Below, piece by piece: positions 37,801 through 64,000 of a stretch of 64,000 bases of DNA. A program made the translations under genes and the position numbers. The notes under the pieces are model-generated. The model had not been told where the DNA came from and made no database searches. It worked only from the letters and a program-made list of their open reading frames with translations. Every line of letters begins with the position of its first letter. Within the stretch, counting starts at the first letter, position 1. This stretch comes from Ustilaginoidea virens. Lineage: Eukaryota; Ascomycota; Sordariomycetes; Hypocreales; Clavicipitaceae. The stretch spans positions 930,001-994,000 of the forward strand of contig NC_057320.1 in NCBI RefSeq assembly GCF_000687475.1, in the 5' to 3' direction.

Positions 37801-38854
37801 TTCGAAATAATCGCCAAGTTTGGTTATGTATCTATCATAGATGGGACGAAGACCTGCTGATGCGATGGATCGTTCGGTCTCAAGTTTTGCAAGCCGGCGG
37901 CAAAGTTTGGATCGCACCATTAAGACTTTTTCAGGATGCAACACGTCACTTGACTCCTTAAGAAACTGTGCAAAAACCACGCACATAATAACTTTGAAGT
38001 GGATTCGTGCAGAATCGTTGCCATCTTCGCATATGTTTGAAAGCATGCGTTGCACGGCTACTCGGAGAATGAGCCAGAAAGGAGATCGTCTCCAAGGATG
38101 CAAGGCCGAGAGAACGACATCATCCCTGATACGTTTCTGAACGCTGGGGACTTGGACTGGTCTCCCAACCGCCTCAAGCAAAGACATTAGCATTTCGCTG
38201 ATCAGGGCGGGATTAGGAGTGTCGCGAGTCTCCACCACCCTTTTGCCTTTCTTTAATGCGCGAGCTGCAAATTGATCAAAACTGAATTCATTGGCTTGTT
38301 CCAGAAAACTGGCAAGGGTGTCATTAAAAGATTCAGCTTTAAGCTCGTTGAGAGGAACAGCAACAGTTCGCCCAGGAAAGTTCCAGCACAGAGCCTGCTT
38401 CGTCCCGAGTACAGAACCAGCCGATGCTGAAGCTTCAAATGATTCAAAAATGACTTCATCCATACTAACGTTTATCAGCACAAGAACTGTGTTTCTTATC
38501 GTGTCATTTAACTAACATTTGATTCCGGTGTATAAGAAGGCCGCAATTTTGTTCGCTGATGTGAAAAATGAGCCATTCAGCAGCACTCTCTGAACCCAGC
38601 AGACGGAGCCCCTCAAGTAAGTGCTCTTTCTTGAGAAGACTCCCGTTCATCTTGTTAGCAAGGTCTAAAGATTTGCTAATCGCATCAAAGGTAGTGCCAA
38701 CTTCAGCATCAAAGACAGTTTTGCAAGCACCCTGCAAGCGCGTTGTCAGCTGCTTGTTAAGGTCGGCGACATCAGATAGTTCTCCTGGTAACTTGGGTGG
38801 GAGTACAAGATGCTCAAACAACATATTAAAGATTTCTTCTTTAGAATTTTCCAT
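28865..38854 (-). CDS. Giant DUF3638/DUF3645-type protein with P-loop, four exons
   Basis: Exons on the complement are 38854-38517, 38464-32484, 32399-29722 and 29650-28865, giving 3260 aa. The introns are 52, 84 and 71 nt, and every join keeps frame. The N-terminus (LFEHLVLPPKLPGE) matches the start domain of the large fungal DUF6606/DUF3638/DUF3645 family. A P-loop-like NMGQGKTS lies at residues about 2102-2109; the second intron splits its Gly codon. VEWVLWSPS opens the last exon, followed by a region ending in an acidic tail with three DGDEVEDEDG repeats. Relatives are labelled 'ubiquitin thioesterase-like' in some databases, but the activity is not established, so I do not claim it. Third codon positions look much less GC-rich than in neighbouring genes. 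Whether expression is constitutive cannot be seen. Confidence 0.85.
28921..29010 (-). repeat. 30-bp coding minisatellite, three copies
   Basis: Three successive 30-bp units (28921-28950, 28951-28980, 28981-29010) differ at only a few bases. On the complement they encode the ten-residue acidic repeat DGDEVEDEDG in the C-terminal tail of the DUF3638-type protein. Unit gain or loss would keep the frame. Confidence 0.92.
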
Positions 38855-41800
38855 TTTTGCAATTTTTTTTCCCGCAACACTGATTAACGACGGAGATTTG
38901 TCTATGATCTTGGGATGTTTTGGGCGGCAGTCTGTTTTAAATCTGAGACTTCCTCAACCTCTGAAAAGGCTATAGGCCTGGGAAAAGCCTTGACCAGCGT
39001 AAGCTGTGATTCAAACGCAGAATTTCGCGTTTGCAAGACACAGTCCTGGAGCCTGGGCAGCTGTTTGAGCCCGTCAATGAATGTAAACATGACGGCGACG
39101 TGCCTCAGGAGCAAAAAGAACCTTTTGAGAACAGACTGCATGGCATTCTTGGCTCATCCAATATAGCCTTGGATCCTTGCCCGTTCGAGATACCTGCCAC
39201 AGTTTCTGGCCCAACATGCTTTGTAAGTTGCTCACAGGAGATAGTGACATAGCAGTAGGATTTGCCAATTGATCGATTAACGTTAGATGTCGTTTCGACG
39301 ATACTGTATGTTTTGCCTCCAAGTTCACAAAAAAGGGTTGCGTTTTATAGAACCTCGAATTCGTTGCAATTTGGTCCAGTTTGATCTTACAAGGCAGGCG
39401 AGGATGGCCGACATCGTTGGTTCAGCTCGCTTAGTGATCGATGGTGAGTTGTCATTTGCCGTAGTAGATACTTGGCCCTTAGATTCATCAAGAAGCTGTG
39501 CGTTCTAATTCTTGCCCTATTCGGCATCTGGAGGTGAATCTCTCCAGATGCAAACGCATTGCTATTGTGAGCGCCATCACGCGAGCCAACTCTATTGGAC
39601 ATTAACCTGTGTGGTCATTGCTCCGAAGGTCAACGGTGAAAATCACCCACGCAAGCAGGTCTCCCGCGTCGACGCGTACAATGACGGCGTTTGTTGTGTG
39701 AGTCGGCGGTAATTCATTGCAATCTGTCTCTGCGAATGTGAATGTCCTCTCACTTGACCCGAAAACAATAATCTTAGAGGTCAGAGCTTTGTGGCCTCAC
39801 AAGTGATTTGTGGCCTCAGGCGAAGAAACGTCTTGTCGTCAGGCAACATTTCTTCGCCACTTTTCAACACTGGGAAAGATCCTACTGTGAACAACCTCAG
39901 GAATATTTGATTGCCAAATTTTGAGGCTTTAATCCTTCTAACTTGGACTTGTGATGTTGAAGGATTCTAAGGTGTTTTAGTTCAACAGCTTGGCTATATC
40001 AGGAGAAAGCTTGGATGAAGGTACTCAGACAGATGGCATTGAGGCCTGCCATTGTAGCTGTGTCGAAACTTGCGCTAAAGATTATCCGTAGCCGGGCTAT
40101 TTTTATGTTTTTATGTTTTATTTAATTCGACGGATAACTTGGCTGAACGCTACGAATTACGGGGTACAGAGCGGGCAATCCCCGCCCAAGAGTAATTTGC
40201 CAAGCGACAAGGTAATTTTAACTCATCTTTCCGACTTTTATCACCAAAAGTCCAAAGAAATCAATGGGCGATTCCAAGCAGTAGCTGAATTATGCATATC
40301 TCGGACACGGTGGCAGGAGCTTGCTCCCAATATAGACCAGTACACTTCACGTCCTTGATGCAAGGCCTAATGCCACCCCCATCATCGTGCCTGCCCAGAT
40401 GACTTGCCATCCGCAGATTAAGCCGCCTTGCCTTTTACTCCACCCCAGACCCTGGGAAGAGGTGACCCCCCCGCCCCCCCCCCCCCCCCCGCATTTCGGT
40501 GGGTGTGACGACAGGATGCAGGCGCCTGACAAATGGAATTTCGCTGATAAGCAGAATTGTTGTCAAAAACGTTGTTTGGGCTGGTCCAATGGCCGTGATT
40601 CCAATCAATCATCCCGAATTAACGAAAAAGGGGAATTGAAGCCGGCATCTTTACTCAATAATCAAGAGGCTGGTTTTGCGACGTGTGTTGGCTGTATTGG
40701 ATAAAGTGTTGGTGGGAACGAACTTTGCGATACACTGATACAGTGATGCCACCATGATCGAGCACAGAGGGACGGAAGTAGGGGCGAGTTGTGCGCAGAT
40801 CGATCGAGTTTCCGTGACTTTGTACTCCGTATTCTGGATCGGGATAGGGGAGGACGGCTCTGCATGTTCTCGCCAAGGATTGATTGTCGTCACGATTTCA
40901 TCTAGATAGCCATCGTCTGGGATGCCAAGCCGTCGTTCATGCAACGGACAGCACCAAGTTGATAAGATCAACAGTTGAGGGAATCAGAAATGCAATGCGG
41001 TTACAATACGGAGTACCGTGACGGTGACTTTTATGCTGCGTCATTCGATCCCTAATCGTTATCGCAGTGCATCCGTTGAGCAAAGCTGTCGATGCCGAAG
41101 GTGCAGCATGCGCGAAAACCAAAGGTCAACAGGAGGAGCGCAAGAGCTGTGCCTAGAGGTACATAGGTAAGTGACATGGCGATCCGACTGCCCGACGCTC
41201 GCAAGGTCGGTGCGAGAGAACGACGACTTAGTACCTAAATAAAGCCGTCGCGGTTGATAACATGGCATTCAGTTTTTTGCTGGTCGAGGGAACGAATACT
41301 TGGTGTCGGCACTACTGACTCATCAATGTTTCTTTTTCCCGGTGCCGACGACCCGCCAAGGACACAAACCAAGCATTGAATGCCATGGACGGACGCGTTC
41401 GTCCTGGATTGTGACGCCGAAAGAATTATCCTAAGCTGTTGCGCGACTCTTCGACAATAATACCTCACAGGGCTTTTTAAATGAGCCTTTTTACATCTAG
41501 TATGGACATGTCGCGGATGTGAAATGGGTGGATGTAACGTTTTGGTGGCCGCACGGTCTATTGGCTGCTGGGTCATCACAGGACACAATCATGAGTGGGC
41601 AGCCATTTATGCCACGGGCTTATTAGCGTCACATCCCATTCCTCCGCTTGGCTAGTGCCCAAACGCGCGTCGAGGTTGATAAGCTGGTGGTGGCCACAAG
41701 GCCACAAGGCCACAAGTCTAGACGGGATTACAAATCTTGTGCCTGATAGGCCATGACTTGTTGATGATGGGTCGACAAGGGGGCCACCCAGACGACGCAG

Positions 41801-49414: not shown

Positions 49415-52400
49415 ATGGGTTGTCGAGTGTGTCGCGCTCGCAAGGTACGCAGGGGAGAGCTGGCTGGGCCTTGCAAGAAGAGAAACCCATCAACCCCGAG
49501 TTTCATCCAAAAAAACCCCAGGTGCACATCTCTCGCGTGTGCTGCCGAGTTACTGATTCCCGGCGCAACCACAAAAACAGGTCAAATGCGACGACCGACC
49601 CGACGGCTGCCGCAACTGCGAGCGCCTGCAGCTGGAATGCGTTGCCGACGACGGCTCGACGCTAGGCGGGAACCGTTCTTCCTCGTCGCCAATGTACCTG
49701 AGGAAGATTCGCACGTATCGATCTTGCCAGAGCTGCCGCTTGTCGAAGACAAAGTGTAATGGCGACCGCCCGAGATGCGCCAGATGCGCCGCCAAGCTGA
49801 TCCAGTGCGTTTACGACGGGGGTGCCGCACCGAGATGGACGCGCAATTTAAGCAGGTTGCAAACGGCCTCTGTCGACGAGGATGCAAGCAGCAGCAGCCC
49901 GGTCGAGCAGGACGGAGCTGAAAGTGTGTCGGTAGCCGTTGCGCCGAGTGAGGTTGACGATGCTGGCTCTGTCCGAGCGGCGTCTCTCCGGCGTGCCGAT
50001 GAGTCGAACGACAAGTCTTTTGTCTTGTCCGCAGCCACTGCTGATGCCCCGGTGACTTGCGCAGCTTCTCAAACCAGCTCGACGGATCAGCTGGCTTCGC
50101 ATCCGTTATCGTGGTAAGTGTGTGCCATCCCGAAACGCCTCTTGCTGATGTGTAAATGGGTAAATTTTTGACGTGTATATGTTTTTTTTTTTAAAAAGGT
50201 TGCTGTCACCTGCTTTACCCGCGCCGAGAAACCTGCGCCGGGTGGTAGAACAGTACTTTTCAAACGTCCACCCCCTGCGTTGCTTTGCCTTTGTGCATAA
50301 GCCGTCCTTTATGAGACAGTTGGACAAAGGCTTCACGTCCGACGACGAGTCTGCGCTACTGCACATAATCTGTGCACATGGTGCCAAGTAGGTCACGCTC
50401 CTGCAGCACTCACTTTCCATGGGTTATCAAACAGCGAGCGTGGCTACTAATCGACCGTTTCAGATTCCTCGCACTCGCCTCGGTCGATGTCACAGCTCCT
50501 CCATCGTTGCTTAAACAAGCAGGCAATCAGTGGGCAAAACGGGCCGAGCACCTCATGCTGGCAAATTTCGGAAAGATTTCAATACAAAGACTCATGGTAT
50601 AGTTCCAAAGAAGAAGAAGAAAGAAGAAGAAGAAAAAAAAGTGATGGTAGGAAATCTTTGCAATTGTGTCATGTGCTGATTGTGCAAGTAGACCGCTATC
50701 CTCCTCCACGACTTTCGTTTTCGCCTGGGCGAGTACGGTCAGGCGCTCATGCTTAGCGGCCTGGCTGTGCGCATGGCCCACGCCTTGAAAATCAACACCG
50801 AGTACAACTCGGATATCCTTTGCACAGAAGAAGGCGGCGACGCTCCATCTGTCGCGTCGAGGGAAAGCCGGCGACGCCTAATGTGGGCCTGCTACGTCCT
50901 CGATGCTTGGGCTGGAAACGGGGTTGATCATTTGACGCTGCTCCGAGAGAACGACATCAAGATTCAGCTTCCGTCCAACGAGCGCAACTTTGGCTTACGG
51001 ATCCCATCCGTCACCGAGACCCTTGGTGTTGGTCACGTCCTGCAGTTCCTCCCCCCGGCCATTGTGCCTCGACGACCCGCCGCCAACATGGGCATCATGG
51101 CGTACTACATCCGGGTCGTCACACTCTGGAAGAGGATCGTCCGGTACGTCAATCATTTGCACGCGGGCCCGCCTCCCTGGCAGCCAGATTCTCTCTTTGC
51201 AGCCCTAGACGCGGACCTGCACCTGTGGCGCCGCGAACTGCCCGACTTTGTCGAATACTCGACCGAGACAATCTACGCCCGCCTGGACTCGAACCAGTTC
51301 GGGGCGCTGGTCCTGATCCACTGCACATACCATCACAACTACCTGGAGCTGTACAAGCTCACTATGCCTAATCTCTTCAAACCCCCCAAGCCCTTCACCT
51401 TTTCTCCCGAGCACCAAGAGTTTCTTCAGTCCGCGCACGCAAACTGCTACTATCACGCCCAGCAAATCGCGGATATCCTGGCCGAAGCCGCGGAGCACGG
51501 CTCTCGTCTGCTGTCCGACAGCTTGCTCCCCTTGTTTGTCTACGACAGCAGCCGAGTCATGCTGTACTACGTGGCTCGGTTGCTCGACCCGACCCGACCC
51601 GACGCAGAGGCCAAAATGAGAGATGCAGTCAAAGCAGTGGAGAGCAACAGCAAGATCCTTTGCATGATGTCTGCACTATTTCCCATTGCTCAGCCATTGG
51701 TAAGCCTCGACCCAACTATCCGTTGCAAGCGCGCACGCGAGAGAGAGAGAGAGATGCTGAGAATCGGGCTCCGCGTTAAGTCTGCCACGATTGAGAGATG
51801 GTTGTCCAAGGTACAACAAACAAGAGGCCGTGACGAGTTGTTGAAAAGTCTGGAATCTGACGAACAGGCCCAGCCTCATCGGCCAGCAATGTGAGTTATT
51901 ATTGTCTTCATTTTCTTCCCCTCTCGTTTCTTGATGCAGTCAGCCACAAACAGCTGAGGGGGGACGCGCTGGGCCAACTTGGAAGTAAGCAGGTCCAACG
52001 AAACCAACCAAAGGCATGGCCCGAGATGTCCAGAGAATGTCCTTTCTCCGCTGTCGCTTAATTCCCTGGCCTGTTCCGGAGCCGGGGAGCCGGCCGGCGC
52101 AGAAGGGGATGCAGCCTCCCGAACCGAGAGCTTCAGCACCCAAAACCCTCATGCCGGAGGGGCCGCATCCCGGGACGGGACAAGCGCCGCGGCTCATCAG
52201 CTTGTCGGGCTCAGCCAAGAGGCATCCGTCAGATCCAGCCTGCAGCACGAGCGGCCCGTATCCCAGCATCCGCTTGGCAAAGCGCCATCGTCGCAGCCAA
52301 TGTGCGACGCGCTGGACCTGGATGACTTGCAAAACTTTCTCTCCTGGGACATGTATGGAATCATGGAAATGGGCGGATCCGTTTCCATCGAAGACATGGA

Positions 52401-52437
52401 CGACTCTGTGTCTCAATCATGGACTGGGGCTATATGA
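49415..52437 (+). CDS. Transcription factor with two tandem Zn2Cys6 clusters
   Basis: Exons are 49415-49444, 49581-50113, 50199-50387, 50464-50596, 50692-51699, 51781-51890 and 51993-52437, giving 815 aa. Cluster 1 uses Cys 3, 6, 13, 20, 23, 30 and cluster 2 Cys 59, 62, 69, 76, 79, 86; both are CX2CX6CX6CX2CX6C. The first intron falls right after Lys10, inside cluster 1. A Ser/Asp-rich linker follows. The fungal transcription factor middle-homology region (PF04082 type) starts around NLRRVVEQYFSNVHPLRCF and includes FVHKPSF, LGEYGQALMLSGLAVRMAHAL and SRRRLMWACYVLDAW. The C-terminus (DLDDLQNFLSWDMYG) is acidic and hydrophobic, a likely activation region. It lies 1.5 kb from the NRPS-like gene on the opposite strand (convergent), so it is the natural candidate for locus regulator. 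The intron 51700-51780 is 81 nt, in frame and free of stops, so it could be retained. Confidence 0.85.
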
Positions 52438-53946
52438 GGGACTGCATAGGGGACCTGTCGCCATATGAGCGCTTGCCGCGCAGCTATCTGTCCGAGGCGA
52501 CTTTAGTTCTTGGATCGAGCAACAAGGCCAGATGAACCAAGTATCTGAAAGCCTCGCCTGGTCGGACCCTTGTCAACAACCCATGGCCAACATGGCACGA
52601 CTCGGAAGCACGCAGAAGACAACGCCACGGCCCCAGCTCGCTTGGACGTATGTCGAGACAGGGAGTCTCCCGCAGCTCGTTCCGTGTGCGGGCAAGTATC
52701 CAATGGCCGTCGTAGAGAGAAGCCGCGTCTCCCGCAGCCGGGAGACTACCGAGCAATTCTTGCTCGCCGCGGTGAAAGCAAGATGGCTCGGTCCGCGGAT
52801 GGGCCGCCGCTCGCTTTGCGCGTCCGGGCCATCGCGGCTTTGGCTCATAAGGCACCTGTGGCTGACTGCCCGGTCTTGCCAGCCGAACCTTGAGTCCGTA
52901 AAGAGTAGCCTGCAAGAGTGTGCAGATTGCCGATCCGCCGGTCCCCGTCTACCATGCGCATGTCGAGCGGAAGAACGACCGTTTCGACTAGAATTAGGCT
53001 TGCCCGTGCATTCATTTTTTTTTTTTGACTTTCTTCTACTGAAAACGCTGGCAAGCACGGCATTTCCGCAGGCGGCCGCCGTAGTGGTAAGATTGCAAGA
53101 GCAGCCAGCATCTGTACTCACCCATCTCGATCCTATGGACCGTGGAATGGACGCGCAGCCGCCGGTACAGCCCCCCCGCCGCGATTCACAAGCGCCTCTC
53201 TACCAATGCATGTACGGATACATACCACCTAAAGAGCGGCAGCAAAGCTACACGGGCCGGGATGCGGTGCAACGACCATTCCTACAGGCAGCAGCAACTC
53301 GTCGACGGAGCTGTGGGCCACTTTGGCATACGGGGTGGGCTCGGGATGGATGGCCAGGCCACAGTGGGATTGCAAATTGCAAATCGCAATTTGACCATCT
53401 TACTCGTGTCGGCCAAGGCGTAGTTCACGGATGGCATGGGGTCCCGGAAATGAACACACGTCGATAGTCAAACCCGGCTTGCTCTGATTCCGGGTTCCCT
53501 TGGGAACAAGAAAAGGGGGGGAAACCGCATGCATAATTCCAGCCGGCCGTTGGGGAGGGAGTAGGCTGGCCGGCCATCTGGGCAACGGCCATGAACTTTG
53601 TCGGCGATGCTGCAAGCCCAGTCGCGAATCATTCTGTACTGGAAGCCCGCTTTTGTCATTGGCAGCTAGGGCCTGGATCTGGCATTGCCTACGATGTGCA
53701 CGAGGGGCGGTGGGCAGACACGCAGTTGACTTCACGGTGATGAAATGACGGAAGAGGCAAGCTTGGCGTCCACAAACGACGCCAAACACGCACCCCGGGC
53801 TGACGAGAGAATCAGCTCGAGACGGATTTATTTCAAGGCTGATTGGGGGCGTAGATTGTCCTCCCATCGACGACCGTCTCCACCAAAAACACACGAGACT
53901 CGGAACCATGCTGCTGAGCCAAGACGTCAATGGCCGATCCAATCAA
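52438..53946. other. Gap between the convergent regulator and NRPS-like gene
   Basis: A 311-codon open frame (52532-53467, +) crosses this gap, but its sequence is Arg/Ser/Gln-rich, crosses a T run (about 53017-53027) and resembles nothing I know, so I do not call it. No RNA gene is seen. Confidence 0.5.
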
Positions 53947-56900
53947 TCAGTCTGCAGAGAACCAATCTCTGATCCACCCAGCCATCCATTCCGCCCGCAG
54001 CGGTTCCAGCAACAGGATGGCTGGAAGAAGACTCCGCGTTTTAGACGTGCCGAGCTTGGCAATAGCACCACCGGGGCCGGACATTTGGCTGTAAAAGTCG
54101 AGCAGCTTGTATCCCGGGTTGCGCAGGCGCGTCTCCGAGCCGTCGGATGCAGAGCTCCCAGCAGCCAGCGCCGACACCCATGCCGCGTAGGGCGTCACGC
54201 TCACGTCCTTTTCTTCCGAGGCGCCACCCCCGATGGCCGACAGGGTGGATCGAACGTCGGGCAAAACGTCAGCCCACGATGTGCTCAGAGGGTTCACGGC
54301 GTGAACGACAAGAGGATCGCTCCCGGCCTCGGCCCCGGCCCCGGCCAGAACCTTGACAAAGTCCACAATCAGGCCGTTCAGGCGGTCGACCGGGATCCAG
54401 TCAATGTCGCCCATGTAGCCGTTGGGGTGGTGCTCGTCTGCAGAACCAAGCGTCTCTGGGAGCGACCCGATGTGCTTTGAGCTTCGGATGAGAATGGGGA
54501 ACCACTCATTCCTGTTCCAGCCGCGGAGCGAGTCTACCGACCCGGTAATCTGCCCGATGCGAACGATTCCCGTCCTGAGGTTGAATTCCTGCGAGGCATA
54601 CTGGAGCAGCAGCTCGCTGATGAACTTGCTCTCGCCGTACCCTGTCACGGCCGGAGATTCCATGTCCCGCAGTATGGTCTCGGGAACTGCGGGCTCAGCT
54701 TGCGGGGTCTGGTGGTAGTTCGCCGTGGCGCTGATGCTTGAGAGGAATATGAGGGAGGGTGCGTGAGCCGAGTGAGCGGCGAGGGAGAGCAGGTTGACAA
54801 GCCCCTGCAGGCTGGGCTTGAAGGATGAGACGGAAAGGTTGAAGTCGACCGGCCACGCGTTGTGGACAATGGTCGTGATGCTGGACTTGATCGTGTCCAA
54901 GATGGGTGGTGAGATTCCCAGGTCAGAGCGCCCGAGGTCCGCTGTGAGGAAGGTGACTTTGGACGACGGCAAAGCTGTGGCGAGACCTCGCCGCGCGTTG
55001 GACCTGATTTGGGCTTGCTCCGAGTCTTGGGACCTATTCAGACAGTAGACGTGGCTGATGGATTCATCGCCGACAAGCTTGTCGAGCACGAACGACCCCA
55101 CGTTTCCAGTTGATCCGGTCAGCAGCACGACGTGCCTCTCGGGCTTCGGAGGATGCGGCGGCAAGCCCGTGCGCTTTGCTTCTCGGCAGAGCGCCGACAA
55201 TGCGGCCTTTTGCGCGTGGAGGATTTCCGTCATGCGCGCAAGACGACCACGGTTCGCCGGGCTGCTGGCCGACGACGCTACCACGTCGGCATCGCGGCGG
55301 CCGGAGGATTCCACAATGACCTGCGACAGGGACTCGACCGAAGGGTTTGAGTAGATGGTCTTGGGCTCAATCCAGGCGAGATGCAGATGCAGCTGCAGAT
55401 GGCGACTCAGCCTGTGGACAATGAGCGAGTCCATGCCCAAGCTGAAAAAGTCAGCATCCGGCTGCACCTCGTTCCAGCCCGTCAGGTGGTGGATGAGGTC
55501 CTGAACCACTTGCGAGACAGACTCTCTGCTTGTGACGTCCAGGTTCTCTCGAGGCTCAAGGGCTATCGCGTCCTCTAGCTCGTTGTACATTGCGGAGATG
55601 TCTTGCTTGTACAGCTCAAGCGTGGCCTTTCTCTGCACGGTTCCCTTTGCCGATCGCGCCATGGGCCTCGACGCTTCGGTAAGCAGTATCTTGGACGGGG
55701 AGACGTGGGCATATCCGGGGTACAAGCTGTTGGCATGCCGGACAAGCGGCCAGATACGATCAATGACTTGTCTGGTCTCTTGGCGCGAGAGGCTGGCGCT
55801 GTTGCACGGCTCGATGAGAAGAGCAGACTCGAACCGCGCGTCTCCCAGCATGAGCACGTCCCGGACTTCGGCGTGGCTGCCGACGATGCGCTCAAACTCT
55901 GCCGGGTTGGTCTTTTCCCCCGTCAGATACACAATCAGGTCGTCGGCGCGACTCTCATACACCCAGGCGTTTGGCCTGTCTGGATGCGGCGCAAACAAGT
56001 CGCCGGTTTCGTATTCCCGCAGATGGGGGTACACGGCGAAGACAGGGTTGGGACGCCCGTGCACGAGGTTGTTGACCAGCACGAGCTCGTGCAAGTTGCC
56101 GAAGCGATGCCGCAGCTGAGCGTGCGCTTGTGGGTGAAACTCGACCGACTGCCAATCGGTGCCCTGGGACAGGGGTTCACGGTAGACCAGGGGGAACGAC
56201 CCAAACTCACTTGAGCCAAAGACCTGGTACAGGGGCAACTTGGACGCGACCAGATCGGCGGCTTCTTGCGGCGCGGCTCCGCCTATGTACACGAGATGTT
56301 GCACCCTGGTCGACACGGCGGCCAGAGCCTGGCTGTCCTGAGCCATGGACTGCAGCATTATAGGAGCCACAAGCACCCAGTCAACCGACGTGTTGCTGAC
56401 GGCCTCGACGATACTGTGAAGGGCGGGAGGAGGGCCGGGCAAGGGATAAACGGGGATGCTTGAGTGAAACATGGGCGAAAAAAGCGTAAAGGCCAATCCG
56501 GCCATCTGCGGATCCCGGGAAAAAAAAAAGAAAGAAACTGACTTAGTAAATCAAGGGCCCGAAGGGGGGGGGGGGGGGGGGTTGGCTGGGAGAGGTGGGC
56601 AGGGACATACATGAAAAACAGGCAGCGTGATAAGCGACGAAGCCTGAGTTAATAGCCGGTTTGGACTATCAAAGCCTTCTGGGGGCTCGATGGACGTGTT
56701 GGAGGCCACGGCAGCAATGAACTCGTTGGTGTATATGAGAGGCTTAGGGATACCTTTTTCAATCGCCATCATTGTTATTATCATGGTGGTCATCATGGTC
56801 ATCAGGGTTATATTTTTCTGATGGCAGTTTCTTCCTGTGTCCTGCTCAATGCGCTTCACACACCTGTCGAGCCCGATGTATGCAAAACGCACACAGGATC

Positions 56901-57514
56901 ATGCTTTGCCTGCTCATACGTCTTCTCATACGGGTACTCAGACACATGCTCCAGGCTGAGCAGGTCCGGCAAGGACTGAATGTGGACTTTGCGCGAGATG
57001 CCGCAGGACGACAGGACCGCCGCGGCAGCGGGCTCCGGACATGTCGTCACCAGGATTTTGCAGCTCAACCGCTCGAGGAGCGATTCAAAGGCAACCTTGC
57101 TGTTGCGCGGCGATGGGAAGAAGACCTGTCGAGTGGACTCGGATGAGACGGGCTGCCCGACCCGGCCGTTTGCAGCAGACTCGGACAACGCACCTTGTAG
57201 CCAGTCATGATGGCTGCGAGCAGGAGGATCGAGTAGCGCAGATCCCCGGGCCCAAGGTAAGCAATGGTTTGATGGTCGTGACTCGTGCCCAGGGTGTCTT
57301 GGATCCACCATGCCAGATGGTTGACGGCTTTCCAAAGCTGCAAGTTGGTGACGAGGCAGAAACCGCTAGCGTATGAGGACGGCGAGGCGGGCAGCTTTGC
57401 GAAGACGCCGGTCGGCGACGAGCGTTTCCGAAGCTCCAGGGCCTCGAGCATAGTTTGGCGAATCTCATTGGCAGGCCGGGCCTGGCTATGCTCAGGGCTC
57501 ACAAGTGCCGACAT
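53947..57514 (-). CDS. NRPS-like A-T-R enzyme (adenylate-forming reductase)
   Basis: Exons on the complement are 57514-57194, 57125-56864, 56753-56611 and 56505-53947, giving 1094 aa, the usual size of the class. The adenylation domain (about 20-530) shows LGPGDLRYSILLLAA, the AMP loop HTSGSTGIPKPL (about 187-199), VFGSSEFG and ETGDLF. The carrier domain has FFSLGMDSL with the phosphopantetheine Ser at about 602. The terminal thioester-reductase domain starts LLTGSTGNVGSFVLD (about 700-715), with the YxxxK pair in GYGESK (about 865). Such enzymes load one carboxylic acid as adenylate and thioester and release it by NAD(P)H reduction as aldehyde or alcohol. There is no condensation domain, so no peptide bond is expected. 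The substrate cannot be read off. The true start may lie upstream: a coding-like stretch begins with ATG at 57928 and could be spliced in at about 57610 (57809/57610). It is divergent from the desaturase. Confidence 0.85.
56565..56582. repeat. Poly-G run in intron 3 of the NRPS-like gene
   Basis: A G run on the + strand (C run on the transcript) lies inside the 105-nt intron between exons ending at 56611 and starting at 56505. It does not affect coding. Confidence 0.85.
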
Positions 57515-59226
57515 GGCCGAAAGGGAGCCTCGCTTGGCTATCCAGGGCTCTGCACTCACGGGGGTTTTTTTGCCGGAGACGCTCGGGCTGGCGGGGGACG
57601 ACGGAGGGCGCTTTTGCGCGGATTCGAAACCAGCCGGTCGATTGATGCTGAAGAAGTAGATAAATAAAATAAATAAATAAATAAAAGCGAGGAAGGCTAA
57701 AAAAAATAATAATAATAAAATAAAATAAAGGAAAAGGAAAAGGAAAAGGAAAAGGGAAGCAGGAGGGCGAGCAAGAGTTGCGGGGGCAGAGACGAAACTG
57801 AATCAAACGTTGCCGGTTCGCCCGTCGTCCTCGATGCCCGCAAAAAAAGCTTTGTCTGACTCTGACACGCCGAAAAGCTGACTAGGGAAGGTATCAAAGT
57901 TGTCAACCGAGCCGGCCGATGACGACATGAATGGTGGAAAATGCAAAGCCGGGGGCCGCAACGAGTCCCGGAGGGCTGGAGTTCCGTGGAACCTTTTTAG
58001 CGCAGCAGCCCAACTTTAAACAAGAGAACATTAGCTGGGGGCGGGGAGGGGGGCTGCGGAAGACGGCAAACGCAACGGTGAGAAGAGAGAGCGGAGGGGC
58101 GACGGGCTGGAGGGGGTGGCGTGGATGCGTGGGAGAGGTTGTCTGGTGCTTGGGGCGAGCGTTGTTGCTTGGGCGAGGGTGAGGTCGTGCCGGGCTAAGC
58201 GAGAGGATCCGAGGGGAGGAGGAAACTTGTGGGAGTCTGGGGTGGGGGCCCTCGAGGTCGTGGAGTGGGGCAGCAAGCCCTATGTCCATCGTTGATCGTC
58301 CATCATCCATCATCCATGCACCCCTGCACCCCTGCACCCCTGCACGTGGGGCAGCGACGTTGGGTCTGGAGACGGTTCGACTTGCTCTATAGGGCCTAGT
58401 GGTCCCCTCAGCGACGAGCGGCCTACCCCGCCTCTCTAGCCACGAGGCCAGGCAATTCCCGCCAGCTGCAACGGCGCCCCCGTCTTGGTCGTTTCCGGCC
58501 GCTTCCGGCTAGTCTCGGCGGGTCACGGCTGCTTTCGGGCGTCGGGGCGTCGAGAGAGTTTGGGGTGCCCGGGGGGGGGGGGGGGGAACAAGCAAACAAA
58601 GTCCTAAAAGACATGATAAAAAAAGAAGCAGCCAGAAAGAGAGAGAATGAAGAAAAAGAAAAGAAACGAAAAAGAAAAGAAAATCAAGAGACAGAGCCGT
58701 GTGGCTAAACGCGATGCAGTCGGAGCTTCCAACCCCCCGGCGATGCACATGGAGAATGTTGTATTTTCCGGCGGCGGCGGCGGCGGCGCCTCAAGGATTC
58801 CCAACCCCACCAACCTCTCCTCTTCTCGTCCCAGAGCAAGGGCCGGCGCGAACCTAATGCAGGGCTTACCCACTCCTTCATGCAGCCGAGATGTCAGTTT
58901 GTAGAACATTCGGGGCATGTCGCTCAGGGAGTCGGCGTATCAACCGTCCGAGGCTAAACAAGTGGCAAAGTAATCCGGAAGGCTCCGACATTCCTACCCA
59001 GAAAAGCTAGCTATCAATAACGGGGGCGGAAAATTATACCAGACCCCATCTCAAACCCCCGCCACCAAGCAACAAGAAACGAGACAACATCGTACGCTCC
59101 GTACAGCAAGCAATACGGCCGGCACTAATGAAATAAATAGTAAACAAGTAAACCCCCCGCATCCCACATGTCTGGTCGACCTCTCCGTCCACACTTTGAC
59201 GACCGAGGAGACTTTTGGCCACTTCG
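57515..59226. other. Divergent promoter region of the NRPS-like and desaturase genes
   Basis: About 1.3-1.7 kb separates two genes transcribed apart, so they may share control. It contains AAATAAAT and GGAAAA repeats (57661-57760), a possible upstream coding exon of the NRPS-like gene (57809-57928 on the complement, 40 codons opening MSSSAGSVDNFDTF), three CACCCCTG units followed by an E-box-like GCACGTGG (58318-58350), a G run (58571-58587), an (CGG)n run near 58770-58790 and a CGTACGCTCCGTAC near-palindrome (59090-59103). Confidence 0.5.
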
Positions 59227-59433
59227 ATGGAGACGGAACAGGAACGCACTGGGTTTCAAACCCGCAACGAACCCCATCCGGCCGAATTGGTCGAGGGCGG
59301 TGTACGTCCTCCTCGCTCCTTCCTTGCGCTGCTCGCTCCTTCCTTGCGTTGCTCGCTCCTTCCCTTGTGTAGAGTCCCGTGCGGTGGTGGTGGTGGCGGT
59401 GGCCTTCTCGGTGCTCCCCCCACCACCACCACC

Positions 59434-59464
<31 letters not shown>

Positions 59465-60881
59465 CAAAACCTCCCCCCCCCCCCCCCCGCTGCAAACGAG
59501 AAAAGAGGCTGGCGCTGACATTTTGCCTTTTTTGGCCGCTGCAGCACGTCAACCAGAAAGTGAGCATTCGCGAGCTGAGAAACAGCATCCCGCCGCATTG
59601 CTTCCAGCCCTCGCTGCTCTGGTCCGCCCTCTACCTGCTTCGCGATCTGGCTTACTCCGCCGTCCTGCTGGCCGCGCTGCATCACCTCCTGCACACGGGG
59701 CTGGTGGCCAAGTCGCCGGCGCTGTACTACCTCGTCGTCACCACCTACGGCTTCTGCCAGGGCATCGTCTGGACCGGGCTCTGGGTCATTGCCCACGACT
59801 GCGGGCACAGCGCCTTTTCCAACTCGGCCTTGCTCAACGATGTGGTCGGCTTCGTCCTTCACTCCAGCCTCCTGGCGCCGTACTTTTCCTGGAAGTCGAC
59901 CCATCGCCGTCACCACATCTACGCCAACCACATTGAAAAGGACCTGAATTATGTGCCGCCCAACCGACCCGAGTACGCCTCCAAGATTGGCCAGGCCGTC
60001 GACACTCTGGAGCACGTAGGCCAGGATTCGCCCCTGGTCCTGCTGCTGAGAATCTTGCTTCAGCAGGCCATCGGATGGAACTGGTACATTCTCTCCAACA
60101 TTACCTGTCCGCCTACTGCCGTCGTCAAGAAGGGCATGTCGGCCTGGCGACATAGCCATTTCGACCCCTGGGGAGCCCTGTTTAGAGAATCCGAGGTTTC
60201 GGCCATTCTCTTGTCTGATTTGGGATGCCTGGGCACAGCCTATGTCTTGTATCAGTTGTATCAAGTATTTGGCTCGTTTGAGACCCTGTTTTGGGTCTAC
60301 ATTGTTCCTTGGACCTGGGTCAATCATTGGATAGGTGGGATCTCTCCTTCTTGCCTTGTTTATTGGCCCCTCCCCCTCAAGGTCTCTCCCTATCCACCTG
60401 TTTCCTAGGCTAACATTTTGTTCCGTCAAGTCATGATTACCTATCTCCACCACACTCATCCCGACTTGCCAAAATACACTCCAGAATCCTGGACTTTTGT
60501 TCGCGGCGCCACTGCCACCATGGACCGCGACTTTGGTTTCATCGGCACGCACTTTCTGCATCACATCTCGTCGGATCACGTCACTCATCACCTCTTTTCG
60601 TCCATCCCCCACTACTACACTCGCCAGGCGAGCCAGGCCATCATTCCTATGCTAGGCAACCACTACCATGGGCGAGGTCGGTTCCGATACGAGGATCTTC
60701 AGATTGCCTTCCGCCAATGCCAGTGGGTGGAAGGCGATGCGGAAAAGGACAGGAAGCTGGGCTTGTATCAGGATGAGCAAAAGGCGGATGCGTGTCGTCG
60801 GGCCTTGTGGTATCGCGGAGGTGTCAGCCCCAGCCCCGAGTATAAGATGAGGGGGGCGACTTTTCTGACGGGGAAGTTCTG

Positions 60882-60882
<1 letters not shown>
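59227..60882 (+). CDS. Delta-12-type fatty-acid desaturase, three exons
   Basis: Exons are 59227-59301, 59545-60334 and 60431-60882, giving 438 aa. It belongs to the membrane di-iron acyl desaturases of the FAD2/delta-12 type (acting on oleoyl chains in the ER). All three His boxes are visible: HDCGHSAF, THRRHHIY and HVTHHLF. Paired hydrophobic stretches surround them (AYSAVLLAALHHLL, LYYLVVTTYGFCQGIVWTGLW, then VSAILLSDLGCLGTAYVLY and TLFWVYIVPWTWVNHWI). KHTxxDLNYVP-like spacing after box 2 reads HIEKDLNYVPP. The second intron has a clear CTAAC branch site (60411-60415) and acceptor at 60430. The N-terminus is uncertain: exon 1 (25 codons, METEQERTGF) is my best frame-keeping choice, across a 243-nt intron with a 29-base A run and a C run. 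It is shorter than typical delta-12 enzymes. Some relatives are acetylenases or chain-modifying enzymes in metabolite clusters, so its exact product is open. Confidence 0.8.
59434..59487. repeat. Poly-A and poly-C tracts in intron 1 of the desaturase gene
   Basis: A 29-base A run (59434-59462) and a C run (about 59472-59488) lie between the proposed exons 1 and 2. They produce a lysine/proline-rich translation if read through, which supports an intron. Confidence 0.85.

Positions 60883-60883
<1 letters not shown>

Positions 60884-60944
<61 letters not shown>
60884..60944. repeat. (CA)n microsatellite followed by poly-A after the desaturase stop
   Basis: About 15 CA units (60884-60913) run straight into a poly-A stretch (60914-60944), starting 2 bases after the desaturase TGA. 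They belong to its 3' untranslated side or to the shared gap with the DUF302 gene. Confidence 0.9.
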
Positions 60945-60946
<2 letters not shown>

Positions 60947-61077
60947 AGAAGAAGAAGAAACGGAAAGATATATAGATGTCTAGGGGAGACGGCAACTGTA
61001 TATTTGGACACCGCAAACAGACAGAATGGTGTACCAAAATAGGAAAAAAAGGGGGAAGAGAAGGACCACTAGATACA

Positions 61078-61785
61078 TCAAGATTGTGCAAGACGCTCTA
61101 TGAGACGATAAACCTTGTCGTCGATCTGCTGTGCCGCCGAGTGCATGCTCTGATTGGCAGCCATGGCCGCATGCCCGGCTACCAGGCCGTCTCGAAGGAG
61201 CAGAATCATGCGTGCCGACCCGTCCGGTTTCTCGACGAACGCGCAGTCCAGCGGAACATGCAGTACAGCCTCGATATCCTGCCGCACCATGTCCCAGGCC
61301 ACGAGGGGATTGCCAAACACGAACCGATGTGCCGCGCGAGGTGCGGGTGCTGCTGCTGCTGCTGCTGCTGCTGATCCTCCTCCTGCATCACTATCTCCTC
61401 CTGCTCTTCCATCATCACCACCACCACCGTTCTCTCCTCCTCCTCCTCCATCATCACCACCACCACCACCACCACCCCCATGACCATCATCCGTCCCCCC
61501 CACATCGGTGGCACCCAGGCCACGCGCGAAATGCCCCATCCACCGCCCGTGGTTGAACTCGGCAAACAGCACAAAGCCCGTCGCCGTCCCCGTCGCTCCC
61601 ACAACCTGCGCGACGCCCTCGGCGCTAGTCGTCCCCGCCAGCTCTGCCAGCCGCACAGGCGGCACCAGCCGGCGGAATCTCTCAACCACCGCGGCGTACG
61701 GTGCGTCCACGTCCACCGTCACGCGCTGGACCGCAATCGTCTCTACTGTTGCTGCTGCGCTGGCGGCAAGCGCGGCGGCAGCCAT
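61078..61785 (-). CDS. DUF302-domain protein with Gly/Asp-rich insertion
   Basis: A 235-aa single exon. The frame fits the DUF302 fold: an initial strand-helix pair (residues about 14-45, VETIAVQRVTVDVDAPYAAVVERFRRL) and a later block with FGNPLVAWDMVRQDIEA, LHVPLDCAFVEKPDGSARM, and KVYRLIERL at the end. DUF302 proteins are small alpha+beta proteins of unknown biochemical role, and fungal copies are found in varied settings. Between the two halves lies a long low-complexity insert (about residues 98-142: Gly/Asp/Ala-rich with an Ala run) made by GGT/CAC repeats, so it is probably a disordered loop. The gene is convergent with the desaturase and divergent from the hydrolase, which suggests it may be part of the locus, though a housekeeping role is equally possible. 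No signal peptide is obvious; the first 15 residues are Ala-rich. Confidence 0.65.
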   Translation of the reverse strand: MAAAALAASAAATVETIAVQRVTVDVDAPYAAVVERFRRLVPPVRLAELAGTTSAEGVAQVVGATGTATGFVLFAEFNHGRWMGHFARGLGATDVGGTDDGHGGGGGGGGDDGGGGGENGGGGDDGRAGGDSDAGGGSAAAAAAAAPAPRAAHRFVFGNPLVAWDMVRQDIEAVLHVPLDCAFVEKPDGSARMILLLRDGLVAGHAAMAANQSMHSAAQQIDDKVYRLIERLAQS

Positions 61786-62768
61786 GGTTGAACCCGTCTG
61801 TTCTGTCCTGTCTGTTCTGTCTGTCTGTTCTCTCTGTCTGTTCTGTCTGTCTGCCTGTCTGCCTGTCTGTCCGCCTTCGTCGTCGTGTCTGTGCTGCGTG
61901 GATTTTTTATTTTTTATTTTTTATTTTTTTTTTTAAATTTTTTGCTCTTCTCCGCCTTGGTCTCGACTCTTTTTTTTTTTATTTTTTATTTTTATTTTTT
62001 TTTCTGATTCGTGGGGGATTTTTGTTTCTTGGATTTTCCCCGGGGGCGGAAAAGCAACGGAGGGTGGAAGGGAAGGGGAGGGGTGTTTGTTTCTCGTTCG
62101 GTTGCCCGCTTGGGAGAAACCGGCAGGCATATCCGCACAACGTGACAACGTGACAACATGCAGAGATGACAGCAATTGCAAGGGAGGGGGGGGCGAGGCG
62201 AGGCGAGACGACGGGAAAACGTGTGCGTGTGGAAACACGGCTTTTCGGATGGAGGGAAGAGGGGGGTGTGAGTCTGTGAGAGGATCGTGGTGGCTCGTAG
62301 CTGGTCGGCGTGGCGGCCACTTGGGCACCAACACTGCTCCAGCACAGCGCTCGCTGCGGACATGGCAACGAGAGGGGAATAAAGTAGCTTCCGGTTGGGA
62401 AATCCTAAATCTGCATGTCTAGAAGAAACATTGGTTTCGTCTCAGTCCAGGCCCGGCGGTGTGTAAGCCATGACTCCAGGACATTGGTGGAGATGGCCGA
62501 CTCCGAGGGGCCAGAAAGGCAAAAAAGCAAGTTCACGGACGAAAAAAAGGAAAAAAAAAAAAAAAAAAAACACGAAAGTAAGCCGCCTTGGCCACCAATA
62601 TCCATCCTCCCGAGTTCTCGAAAGCGACCTCGTGTCCCGTGTCGGCGAATTGTAATTCGGCCGCCCCTCCCTCCCCGCGACTCAGAGACAAACCAACCCA
62701 TCCCTTGCATCTTTTTTTTTCCCCCTCCAATATTGGCAAAGACCAGACAGACGCTTTCCGACTCGGCC
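61786..62768. other. Divergent region between the DUF302 and hydrolase genes
   Basis: Holds (CTGTCTGT)n repeats at about 61800-61870, AT-rich TTTTTATTTT tracts (61905-62005) and poly-A (about 62551-62570). No gene is supported. A reverse-strand frame at 62405-62995 is a shadow across this gap and the hydrolase start. Confidence 0.55.
61800..61870. repeat. CTGTCTGT-type microsatellite
   Basis: TCTGTCTGT and TCTGCCTGT units repeat imperfectly just upstream of the DUF302 start codon. Confidence 0.8.
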
Positions 62769-64000
62769 ATGGCCCGCCTTGTCCCACTCCAAGAGGACTT
62801 CCCATTCGACATCATCTCACATGATGTGCCCGTCACCCCGTTCCGGGAATACCCAACTGCAGTCGTCGACGAAAGCAGGGGCCTGAGGCTTTCCGTCAAG
62901 CAGTATATCCCTCGGGACGACAAACATCGCACCAATGAGGCCCTCCGAACAGAGCCCATCACCATCATCGCCGCGGGAGCCTTGGGCATCGCCAAGGAAT
63001 CCTACGAGCCGCTATTCGAGGAGCTGCTCAGGTGCGCGCAGTCCTCGGGGGTGCTTATTCGGTCAATATGGATGGCGGACATGTTCAACGTCGGGCAGAG
63101 CGCGCTCCTGAACCAGGACAATCTAGGCTGCGACCCGGCGTGGATAGACCACTCTCGGGACCTGTGGAGCCTGATCAGCCGCTTTTCCGACCTCATGGTC
63201 AAGCCCATCGTTGGTCTCGGCCACTCCTTTGGGTGTAACCAGCTGCTCTGTCTTTCGTGCTGGCACCCAAGCCTATTCCATTCCTTCGCCTTTGTCGAGC
63301 CGGGCATCGACGCCCGCTATGGCAGGGGAATCACCATTCCCTGGGCCTTGCAGGCACTGCGGCAGAGGGACTCGTTCCCAACCAGGGCCGAAGCCGAAGA
63401 CGCCGTCGTCAAGCTCAACAATGCTGCGTCCTGGGACCCCAGAGCTCTGTCGCGCCTGAAGCACTACTCGGTCCGTCAGGCAAGGGACAAGGACGGGGCA
63501 AGGAGCGTCTGGCGCCCCGTCACGCCAAAGCATCAGATCGCAGCTCTGGTGAGCCGCTTCAACCCTGGGCGCGTGGGTCTCGGGCCCAACGGGACCAAGG
63601 GCGTCACCATGGCGGAGCGGGAAGTGGTGCCCGACAGCGATCCTCTGGCCTTCAACATAGGCCCCTTTTACCGACACGAGCTGCGGCTAGCATGGAATAT
63701 GCTGCCCAGCATGAGACCATGCGTCTTGTACGTCAATGGAGCCAAGTCGCCGTTCTTCGGGCACCCAGCGACCCGCGAGGAGAGGCTGCGTCGAACGGGA
63801 ACGGGAGTCGGAGGCAACGGCGGAGTGAAGCTAGGCGCCGTCAGGCAGGTCGTCATCGAAGGCGGTGAGCATACCATGGTATTCGACGAGAGTCTGAAGA
63901 CGGTGGCGGCTCATGTTGCCGACTGGTTAGCGGACGAGTGCCGGCGGTGGACGGAAGGACCCAAGAGACGAAGAGAACTGTGGCTGAGGGACGCTAAGGA
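62769..64000 (+). CDS. AKT2-like alpha/beta hydrolase, 3' end beyond the window
   Basis: 410 codons from CCATGG (ATG 62769), with no stop or intron before the window ends, so the gene is partial. The nucleophile elbow GLGHSFGCNQ (about residues 146-155) gives the Ser of the catalytic triad, and EGGEHTMVFDE (about 369-379) supplies the His; an acidic partner lies in between but I cannot assign it. The opening MARLVPLQEDFPFDIISHDVP and the YNTWxLxxR-less, elongated body match the 'toxin biosynthesis protein' alpha/beta hydrolases named after AKT2 of Alternaria. Those are peroxisome-targeted enzymes of specialised-metabolite clusters and of general lipid/ester metabolism; whether this protein has a C-terminal peroxisomal signal cannot be seen here. 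Head-to-head with DUF302, it extends the candidate cluster off the right edge. Confidence 0.8.
   Translation, partial: MARLVPLQEDFPFDIISHDVPVTPFREYPTAVVDESRGLRLSVKQYIPRDDKHRTNEALRTEPITIIAAGALGIAKESYEPLFEELLRCAQSSGVLIRSIWMADMFNVGQSALLNQDNLGCDPAWIDHSRDLWSLISRFSDLMVKPIVGLGHSFGCNQLLCLSCWHPSLFHSFAFVEPGIDARYGRGITIPWALQALRQRDSFPTRAEAEDAVVKLNNAASWDPRALSRLKHYSVRQARDKDGARSVWRPVTPKHQIAALVSRFNPGRVGLGPNGTKGVTMAEREVVPDSDPLAFNIGPFYRHELRLAWNMLPSMRPCVLYVNGAKSPFFGHPATREERLRRTGTGVGGNGGVKLGAVRQVVIEGGEHTMVFDESLKTVAAHVADWLADECRRWTEGPKRRRELWLRDAK

What the first reader, a model, noticed from the sequence alone, without database searches (positions are those of the whole stretch)
49415..64000. Candidate metabolite cluster: tandem-Zn2Cys6 regulator, A-T-R reductase, delta-12-type desaturase, DUF302, AKT2-like hydrolase
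Five genes sit side by side with alternating strands, and four belong to families common in fungal specialised metabolism. I do not know a characterised cluster that pairs this core enzyme with a delta-12 desaturase and an AKT2-like hydrolase. The set suggests an unsaturated, acid-derived aldehyde or alcohol, possibly ester-linked. The genes could also be unrelated neighbours.
Basis: partly seen in the sequence, partly recalled or inferred. Interest (0 to 1): 0.75.

Follow-up and report, generated by a model that had tools for sequence, protein, structure and literature searches.

The report
Fungal desaturase-hydrolase-reductase gene cluster
Six neighbouring genes of the rice false smut fungus look like a small biosynthetic cluster that may desaturate a fatty chain, release the trimmed acid in peroxisomes and reduce it to an aldehyde or alcohol, and part of it is kept together in distantly related fungi.

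Summary
The five genes are real and alternate in strand (+,-,+,-,+). A sixth, a cytochrome P450 (-), lies 2.5 kb past the window end. The genome is Ustilaginoidea virens: the desaturase is 100% identical to UV8b_06263.

In 5 of 5 genomes whose tag prefixes show in both hit lists, desaturase and hydrolase lie 1-2 tags apart; Conoideocrella adds the reductase next door, in the same order.

Best model: desaturation, peroxisomal chain shortening, release of the free acid, then reduction, with P450 tailoring. Chemistry and product are inferred. DUF302 is below Pfam's cut-off. No shared promoter motif beyond chance was found. Verdict: a genuine cluster, not found described in the searches made; a new variant of a known kind.

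The parts
49415..51894 (+). Transcription regulator with two tandem Zn2Cys6 clusters; exons 49415-49444, 49581-50113, 50199-50387, 50464-50596, 50692 onward; a further exon up to about 52437 is possible
   Evidence: Pfam Zn_clus (2 stretches, 1.5e-15) and Fungal_trans (1.5e-20); exon model; 3' end uncertain
53947..57514 (-). A-T-R protein (adenylation, carrier, thioester reductase), fungal carboxylic acid reductase type, 1094 aa; exons 57514-57194, 57125-56864, 56753-56611, 56505-53947
   Evidence: Pfam; best solved relative 8aep, the NcCAR R domain, 5.8e-60 with GYGxSK aligned; Conoideocrella QQS21_006568 59% over 99%, whose protein matches the same four exons
59227..60882 (+). FAD2/delta-12-like membrane fatty acid desaturase with an HDCGH first box, 438 aa; exons 59227-59301, 59545-60334, 60431-60882
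   Evidence: 100% identical to UV8b_06263; PF00487 1.2e-20; boxes HDCGH, HRRHH, HVTHH; exon model
61078..61785 (-). DUF302-like protein, 235 aa, with a low-complexity Gly/Asp/Ala stretch; role unknown
   Evidence: PF03625 3e-4, 21.1 bits against cut-off 23; only low-complexity matches among solved structures; no match at E 0.001 in the family's whole-genome search
62769..64000 (+). MpaH'/AKT2-type alpha/beta hydrolase, 437 aa, C-terminal GKL (PTS1-like); the gene runs on to 64082, outside the window. The next recognised gene, a cytochrome P450 on the minus strand (open frame at genome C5:996531-998165, introns not modelled), lies wholly outside the window and is counted with the cluster by position only

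Best explanation
A specialised-metabolite cluster, probably of six genes, that turns a fatty acyl chain into an unsaturated aldehyde or alcohol. Proposed order: (1) the membrane desaturase adds or modifies a double bond on an acyl chain (family shown, product inferred). (2) The chain enters peroxisomes and is shortened by housekeeping beta-oxidation (inferred; no beta-oxidation gene was seen in the block). (3) The GKL-tagged hydrolase cuts the acyl-CoA and stops shortening, as MpaH' does for mycophenolic acid (family, fold and signal shown by sequence and model; substrate inferred). (4) The A-T-R enzyme activates the free acid with ATP, loads it on its carrier and reduces it with NADPH to an aldehyde, possibly an alcohol (domains and catalytic Tyr/Lys shown; substrate inferred). 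(5) The P450 tailors the product (inferred). The tandem-Zn2Cys6 protein regulates the set (inferred). The role of the DUF302-like protein is unknown.
Against: No enzymatic, expression or metabolite data. The reductase is linked to the pair in one relative only; Penicilliopsis zonata has a reductase relative and a desaturase relative on contigs of different length. Of 20 desaturase tag prefixes typed, 5 have a listed hydrolase (plus U. virens itself, whose hydrolase bears no tag), so the pair is not shown to be obligatory. No acyl-CoA ligase, oxidase or hydratase was found among the ORFs scanned; none of the 10 scored enoyl-CoA hydratase hits lies near. No shared promoter motif beyond chance. 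P450 membership rests on position. The gene between desaturase and hydrolase in relatives was not read. The hydrolase has Glu where MpaH' has Asp.
Confidence: 0.5

Rival explanations
1. Two pieces side by side: an old desaturase-hydrolase lipid module and a separately acquired reductase/regulator/P450 set that reduces another acid, for example an aryl acid.
For: The pair is seen without a listed reductase relative in Penicillium taxi, P. macrosclerotiorum, P. atrosanguineum and Pyrenula (the reductase list shows 120 of 194 hits). Benzoic acid is a substrate of NcCAR, the closest solved relative (passages).
Against: Conoideocrella keeps reductase and desaturase on neighbouring tags in the same order as here, and the genes interleave on alternating strands.
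Confidence: 0.22
2. AK-toxin or mycophenolate-like logic: the hydrolase releases a polyketide- or terpenoid-derived acid whose backbone is made by genes elsewhere in the genome, and the desaturase acts on that backbone.
For: Both characterised relatives (MpaH', AKT2) serve non-fatty-acid backbones: PMC9134587 and PMC10816013, passages.
Against: No PKS, prenyltransferase, AKT1- or AKT3-type gene was seen among the ORFs scanned; the desaturase belongs to the FAD2-like family; the hydrolase clade is parted, SH-aLRT 100, from five Asp-type rows, two of them named Akt2-like (MpaH' and AKT2 themselves were not in that tree).
Confidence: 0.17
3. Lipid housekeeping or oxylipin modification rather than a dedicated metabolite cluster.
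For: Desaturase, acyl-CoA hydrolase and P450 all occur in ordinary lipid metabolism (recalled).
Against: Patchy listed distribution, A-T-R enzyme and regulator in the block, two other FAD2-like genes in the genome.
Confidence: 0.07
4. Unrelated neighbours.
For: Alternating strands and long intergenic gaps; no shared promoter motif.
Against: Synteny 5 of 5, and collinearity in Conoideocrella.
Confidence: 0.04

Closest known systems
MpaH' peroxisomal acyl-CoA hydrolase (mycophenolic acid)
   Same: Fold, nucleophile and His positions, C-terminal GKL signal, proposed job of ending peroxisomal shortening by releasing the free acid
   Different: Glu instead of Asp at the aligned acid position in 40 of 40 rows of its clade; partner genes are a desaturase and a reductase, not a PKS/prenyl pathway
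AKT2 of the Alternaria AK-toxin cluster
   Same: Same wider hydrolase family, going by the source names of hits P0281 and P0288; peroxisomal tripeptide in AKT2 (passages)
   Different: No AKT1-, AKT3- or PKS-type partners seen among the ORFs scanned; Akt2-named rows fall outside its clade. AKT2 itself was not compared
Fungal type III carboxylic acid reductase (NcCAR)
   Same: A-T-R order; R domain alignable over about 400 residues with the Tyr/Lys pair
   Different: Sits in a block with a desaturase and a hydrolase; substrate unknown
Moth pheromone logic rebuilt in yeast (desaturase, beta-oxidation, reductase)
   Same: Same order of operations: desaturate, shorten in peroxisomes, reduce (PMC9435373, abstract and outline)
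   Different: Different enzymes; there a fatty acyl-CoA reductase acts, here a hydrolase plus a free-acid reductase would do it
Plant divergent FAD2 enzymes (acetylenases, conjugases)
   Same: HDCGH in place of HECGH in the first box occurs in one of eleven safflower FAD2 (PMC3554562, passages)
   Different: The residue before box 1 is Ala, as in plant delta-12 FAD2, and the (D/N)VX(H/N) acetylenase motif is absent

Membership tests
MpaH'-type peroxisomal acyl-CoA hydrolases | Alpha/beta-hydrolase fold of MpaH' | tested here: met
MpaH'-type peroxisomal acyl-CoA hydrolases | Ser and His of the catalytic triad | tested here: met
   S153 aligns with S139 (Ala in the 7dbl mutant) and H368 with a C-terminal His of MpaH'; both invariant in 51 of 51 rows
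MpaH'-type peroxisomal acyl-CoA hydrolases | Asp as the acid residue | tested here: not met
   E177 at the aligned Asp position; Glu in 40 of 40 clade rows, Asp in 11 of 11 others. That this position is the triad acid is recalled; no geometry was measured. So the claim is 'works like', or sister clade
MpaH'-type peroxisomal acyl-CoA hydrolases | C-terminal PTS1 | tested here: met
   GKL, the tripeptide reported for MpaH; localisation itself not tested
MpaH'-type peroxisomal acyl-CoA hydrolases | Acyl-CoA hydrolase activity | not testable with these tools
   Needs purified enzyme
Fungal carboxylic acid reductase (A-T-R) | Adenylation, carrier and reductase domains in that order | tested here: met
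   PF00501, PF23562, PF00550, PF07993 above cut-offs
Fungal carboxylic acid reductase (A-T-R) | Reductase Tyr-x3-Lys and GxxGxxG | tested here: met
   GYGESK aligned with GYGQSK of 8aep; LTGSTGNVGSF; Tyr844/Lys848 named in PMC10168641 (passages)
Fungal carboxylic acid reductase (A-T-R) | Reduces a carboxylic acid to an aldehyde | not testable with these tools
   Needs assay
FAD2/delta-12 membrane desaturases | Three His boxes | tested here: met
   HDCGH, HRRHH, HVTHH; PF00487
FAD2/delta-12 membrane desaturases | HECGH-type first box of ordinary delta-12 enzymes | tested here: not met
   HDCGH here; Asp in 47 of 49 rows at 65% identity or more, Glu in 11 of 11 at 50-65% and 53 of 54 below 50% (114 of 120 listed rows readable)
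Plant-type acetylenases | (D/N)VX(H/N) at -5 to -2 of box 3 | tested here: not met
   Residues -5 to -2 before HVTHH read HISS
AK-toxin type cluster | AKT1 ligase, AKT3 hydratase and PKS beside the hydrolase | tested here: not met
   None of 10 scored enoyl-CoA hydratase hits lies near C5:0.98-1.0 Mb; none of the three kinds among the 20 ORFs and gene models scanned, which were chosen likely coding ones, not all
DUF302 (PF03625) | Score above Pfam's cut-off | tested here: not met
   21.1 bits against 23

The most novel reading that the evidence does not exclude
A dedicated fungal pathway in which a functionally diverged (HD-type) FAD2 enzyme makes an unusual bond, for example conjugated or acetylenic, on a fatty chain; the chain is trimmed in peroxisomes; a Glu-type clade of MpaH-like hydrolases sets the length by releasing the acid; and a carboxylic acid reductase turns it into a short unsaturated aldehyde or alcohol. 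The desaturase-hydrolase pair would be an old, exchangeable module shared by Clavicipitaceae, Penicillium and Pyrenula.
Probability: 0.27. Interest if true: 0.7.

Novelty: new variant of a known kind. Interest (0 to 1): 0.5.

Why it matters
If right, it would show fungi building unsaturated aldehydes or alcohols from fatty acids by a clustered desaturase, a peroxisomal chain-length gate and a reductase, a logic known from moth pheromones but not shown for a fungal cluster in the searches made here. It would also assign a role to a desaturase-hydrolase gene pair seen in several fungal genomes, and give a testable product for an uncharacterised cluster in a major rice pathogen.

Tried and rejected
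Shared regulator site: four putative promoter stretches (800 + 1712 + 983 + 800 bases) were scanned for CGG/CCG/TCG/CGA dyads (336 patterns, best ratio 4.4, not corrected for the number tried) and shared k-mers. One 9-mer is in three of four, but half of 500 random sets of four stretches from outside the block also had at least one set-specific shared 9-mer. Rejected as evidence.

Literature: no paper in the open-access library holds UV8b_06261 to 06266; some papers use an older four-digit Uv8b numbering, which was not searched for these genes. Searches for U. virens with desaturase and NRPS-like, fungal acetylenase clusters, U. virens clusters, adenylate-forming reductase with desaturase and peroxisome, crepenynate/polyacetylene and AKT2/MpaH with desaturase showed no description of this cluster in their listings (the longer ones capped at 15-20 rows). 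U. virens papers seen in passages (PMC8667953, PMC10607355, PMC13233505) count secondary-metabolite genes or clusters (5 NRPS-like in UV-8b by antiSMASH in PMC13233505); the passages name none of these genes by a tag I could match. Passages of PMC12352038 (Conoideocrella genome) do not mention it. Passages of PMC12591190 agree that MpaH' releases the product from its CoA ester.

DUF302 by solved structures: antibody linkers and other low-complexity matches, rejected. Plant acetylenase motif: not met. Desaturase by sequence in PDB: none at E 0.001; by fold, two chains of Chlamydomonas FtsHi motor complexes (E 6.7e-9 and 3.1e-8), chain identity not given, not used. P450 subfamily: PDB and NCBIfam matches are generic.

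Rows dropped: in the hydrolase analysis 16 of 67 hits (P0292-P0307) were left out; the fold alignments used 44 of 67 hydrolase and 49 of 120 listed desaturase hits; trees used 23 and 25 chosen rows, quick method, and the desaturase tree warns of long branches in its outgroup. Tag census: 20 of 120 listed desaturase hits and 16 tags (14 prefixes) of the close hydrolase hits were typed; I compared the other listed names by eye. The desaturase and reductase lists show 120 of 616 and 120 of 194 hits, and each row may stand for several genomes, so absence from a list is not absence from a genome.
Full report
What is there. The window is C5:930001-994000 of a 37.16 Mb, 8-contig genome. The desaturase model is identical over 438 residues to UV8b_06263 of Ustilaginoidea virens, on a contig of the same length as C5. 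Fetching the next stretch completes the hydrolase (82 bases past the window) and reveals a P450 on the minus strand at about C5:996531-998165 (PF00067 4.6e-57). Flanking genes are of other kinds: the DUF6606/DUF3638/DUF3645 and Hobbit/FMP27 proteins and an ORF without Pfam match upstream, PTR2, a PAPS-reductase-type protein and MAP65 downstream. Only chosen, likely coding ORFs were scanned, not all.

Are they a cluster? Fungal genomes could not be searched for context here, but source names in the protein lists carry locus tags. Among genomes whose tag prefix shows in both the desaturase and the hydrolase list, 5 of 5 have the two genes 1 or 2 tags apart: Conoideocrella luteorostrata (QQS21_006567/006565), Penicillium macrosclerotiorum (N7462_010012/010010), P. 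atrosanguineum (N7448_004099/004101), P. taxi (N7495_008809/008810) and Pyrenula ochraceoflavens (Q9227_005804/005803). The longest-contig lengths agree in each pair. For random genes in a 10,000-gene genome this is about 0.0004 each; the Penicillium genomes are related, so the five are not fully independent. In Conoideocrella the reductase is QQS21_006568 (59% over 99%), giving reductase-desaturase-one gene-hydrolase, the same order as reductase-desaturase-DUF302-hydrolase here. The unread middle gene is predicted to be the DUF302 gene. The Conoideocrella reductase also maps onto the same four exons in this genome, which supports the gene model. In P. taxi and Pyrenula the pair is on adjacent tags, so a gene in between is not a fixed feature.

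Limits of the synteny. The pair is not shown to be obligatory: 15 of the 20 desaturase tag prefixes typed have no listed hydrolase tag; one of those is U. virens itself, whose hydrolase bears no tag. The reductase is linked in one relative; in Penicilliopsis zonata reductase and desaturase relatives are on contigs of different length. Lists are truncated, so absences are weak.

The reductase. All A-T-R domains pass Pfam cut-offs. The nearest solved structure is 8aep (5.8e-60), the reductase domain of Neurospora crassa CAR (PMC10168641, passages), with the catalytic Tyr and Lys aligned. That enzyme also reduced octanal to the alcohol, so an alcohol product is possible here. Substrate was not determined.

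The desaturase. It is a FAD2/delta-12-like membrane enzyme by family, but its first box is HDCGH. Of 114 readable rows among 120, Asp occurs in 47 of 49 at 65% identity or more, 0 of 11 at 50-65% and 1 of 54 below 50%. The fungus has two other FAD2-like genes with HECGH, so this one is perhaps not needed for ordinary linoleate (inference). HDCGH occurs in one of eleven safflower FAD2 (PMC3554562, passages), but two other marks discussed there speak against a plant-type acetylenase: Ala precedes box 1, and the (D/N)VX(H/N) motif is absent. The product is open.

How it most likely works. Desaturase, peroxisomal shortening by housekeeping enzymes, release of the acid by the GKL hydrolase, reduction by the A-T-R enzyme, oxidation by the P450. 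The attraction of this order is chemical: a hydrolase yields the free acid that an A-T-R enzyme needs (inference). It resembles the moth pheromone scheme rebuilt in yeast (PMC9435373, abstract and outline). Shown: genes, families, catalytic residues by alignment, targeting signal by sequence, synteny of three genes. Inferred: substrates, order, product, regulation, P450 and DUF302 roles.

What did not help. No shared promoter motif beyond chance. DUF302 stays sub-threshold. No paper in the open-access library names UV8b_06261 to 06266.

Verdict. It is a partly conserved cluster with known kinds of enzymes in a combination that the searches did not show described.

Noticed in passing
window 32000-41000: GC falls to 0.45-0.50 against 0.54-0.60 around it; the stretch covers the 2015-residue ORF (DUF6606, start of DUF3638) and the bases upstream of it.
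   Followed up: no
window 32400-32480: The DUF3638 domain is shared by two minus-strand ORFs in one frame, parted by a stop; the profile positions join (1-53, then 52-224), which looks like a short intron.
   Followed up: partly
window 56564-56581, 59434-59462, 60883-60944: Long single-base runs (G18, A29, A32) and AC repeats sit in introns and just behind a gene; C runs lie in the flank.
   Followed up: no
window 61300-61500: The DUF302-like coding sequence carries repeat-like stretches giving runs of Gly, Asp and Ala in the middle of the protein.
   Followed up: partly
L024 (C5:474677-475648): A second, weaker relative of the hydrolase (32% identity) lies 0.5 Mb away on the same contig.
   Followed up: no
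C4:5297655-5300890 (L034, L037): A second A-T-R-like gene (matches at 32-34% identity to the Conoideocrella reductase) is present in the genome.
   Followed up: no
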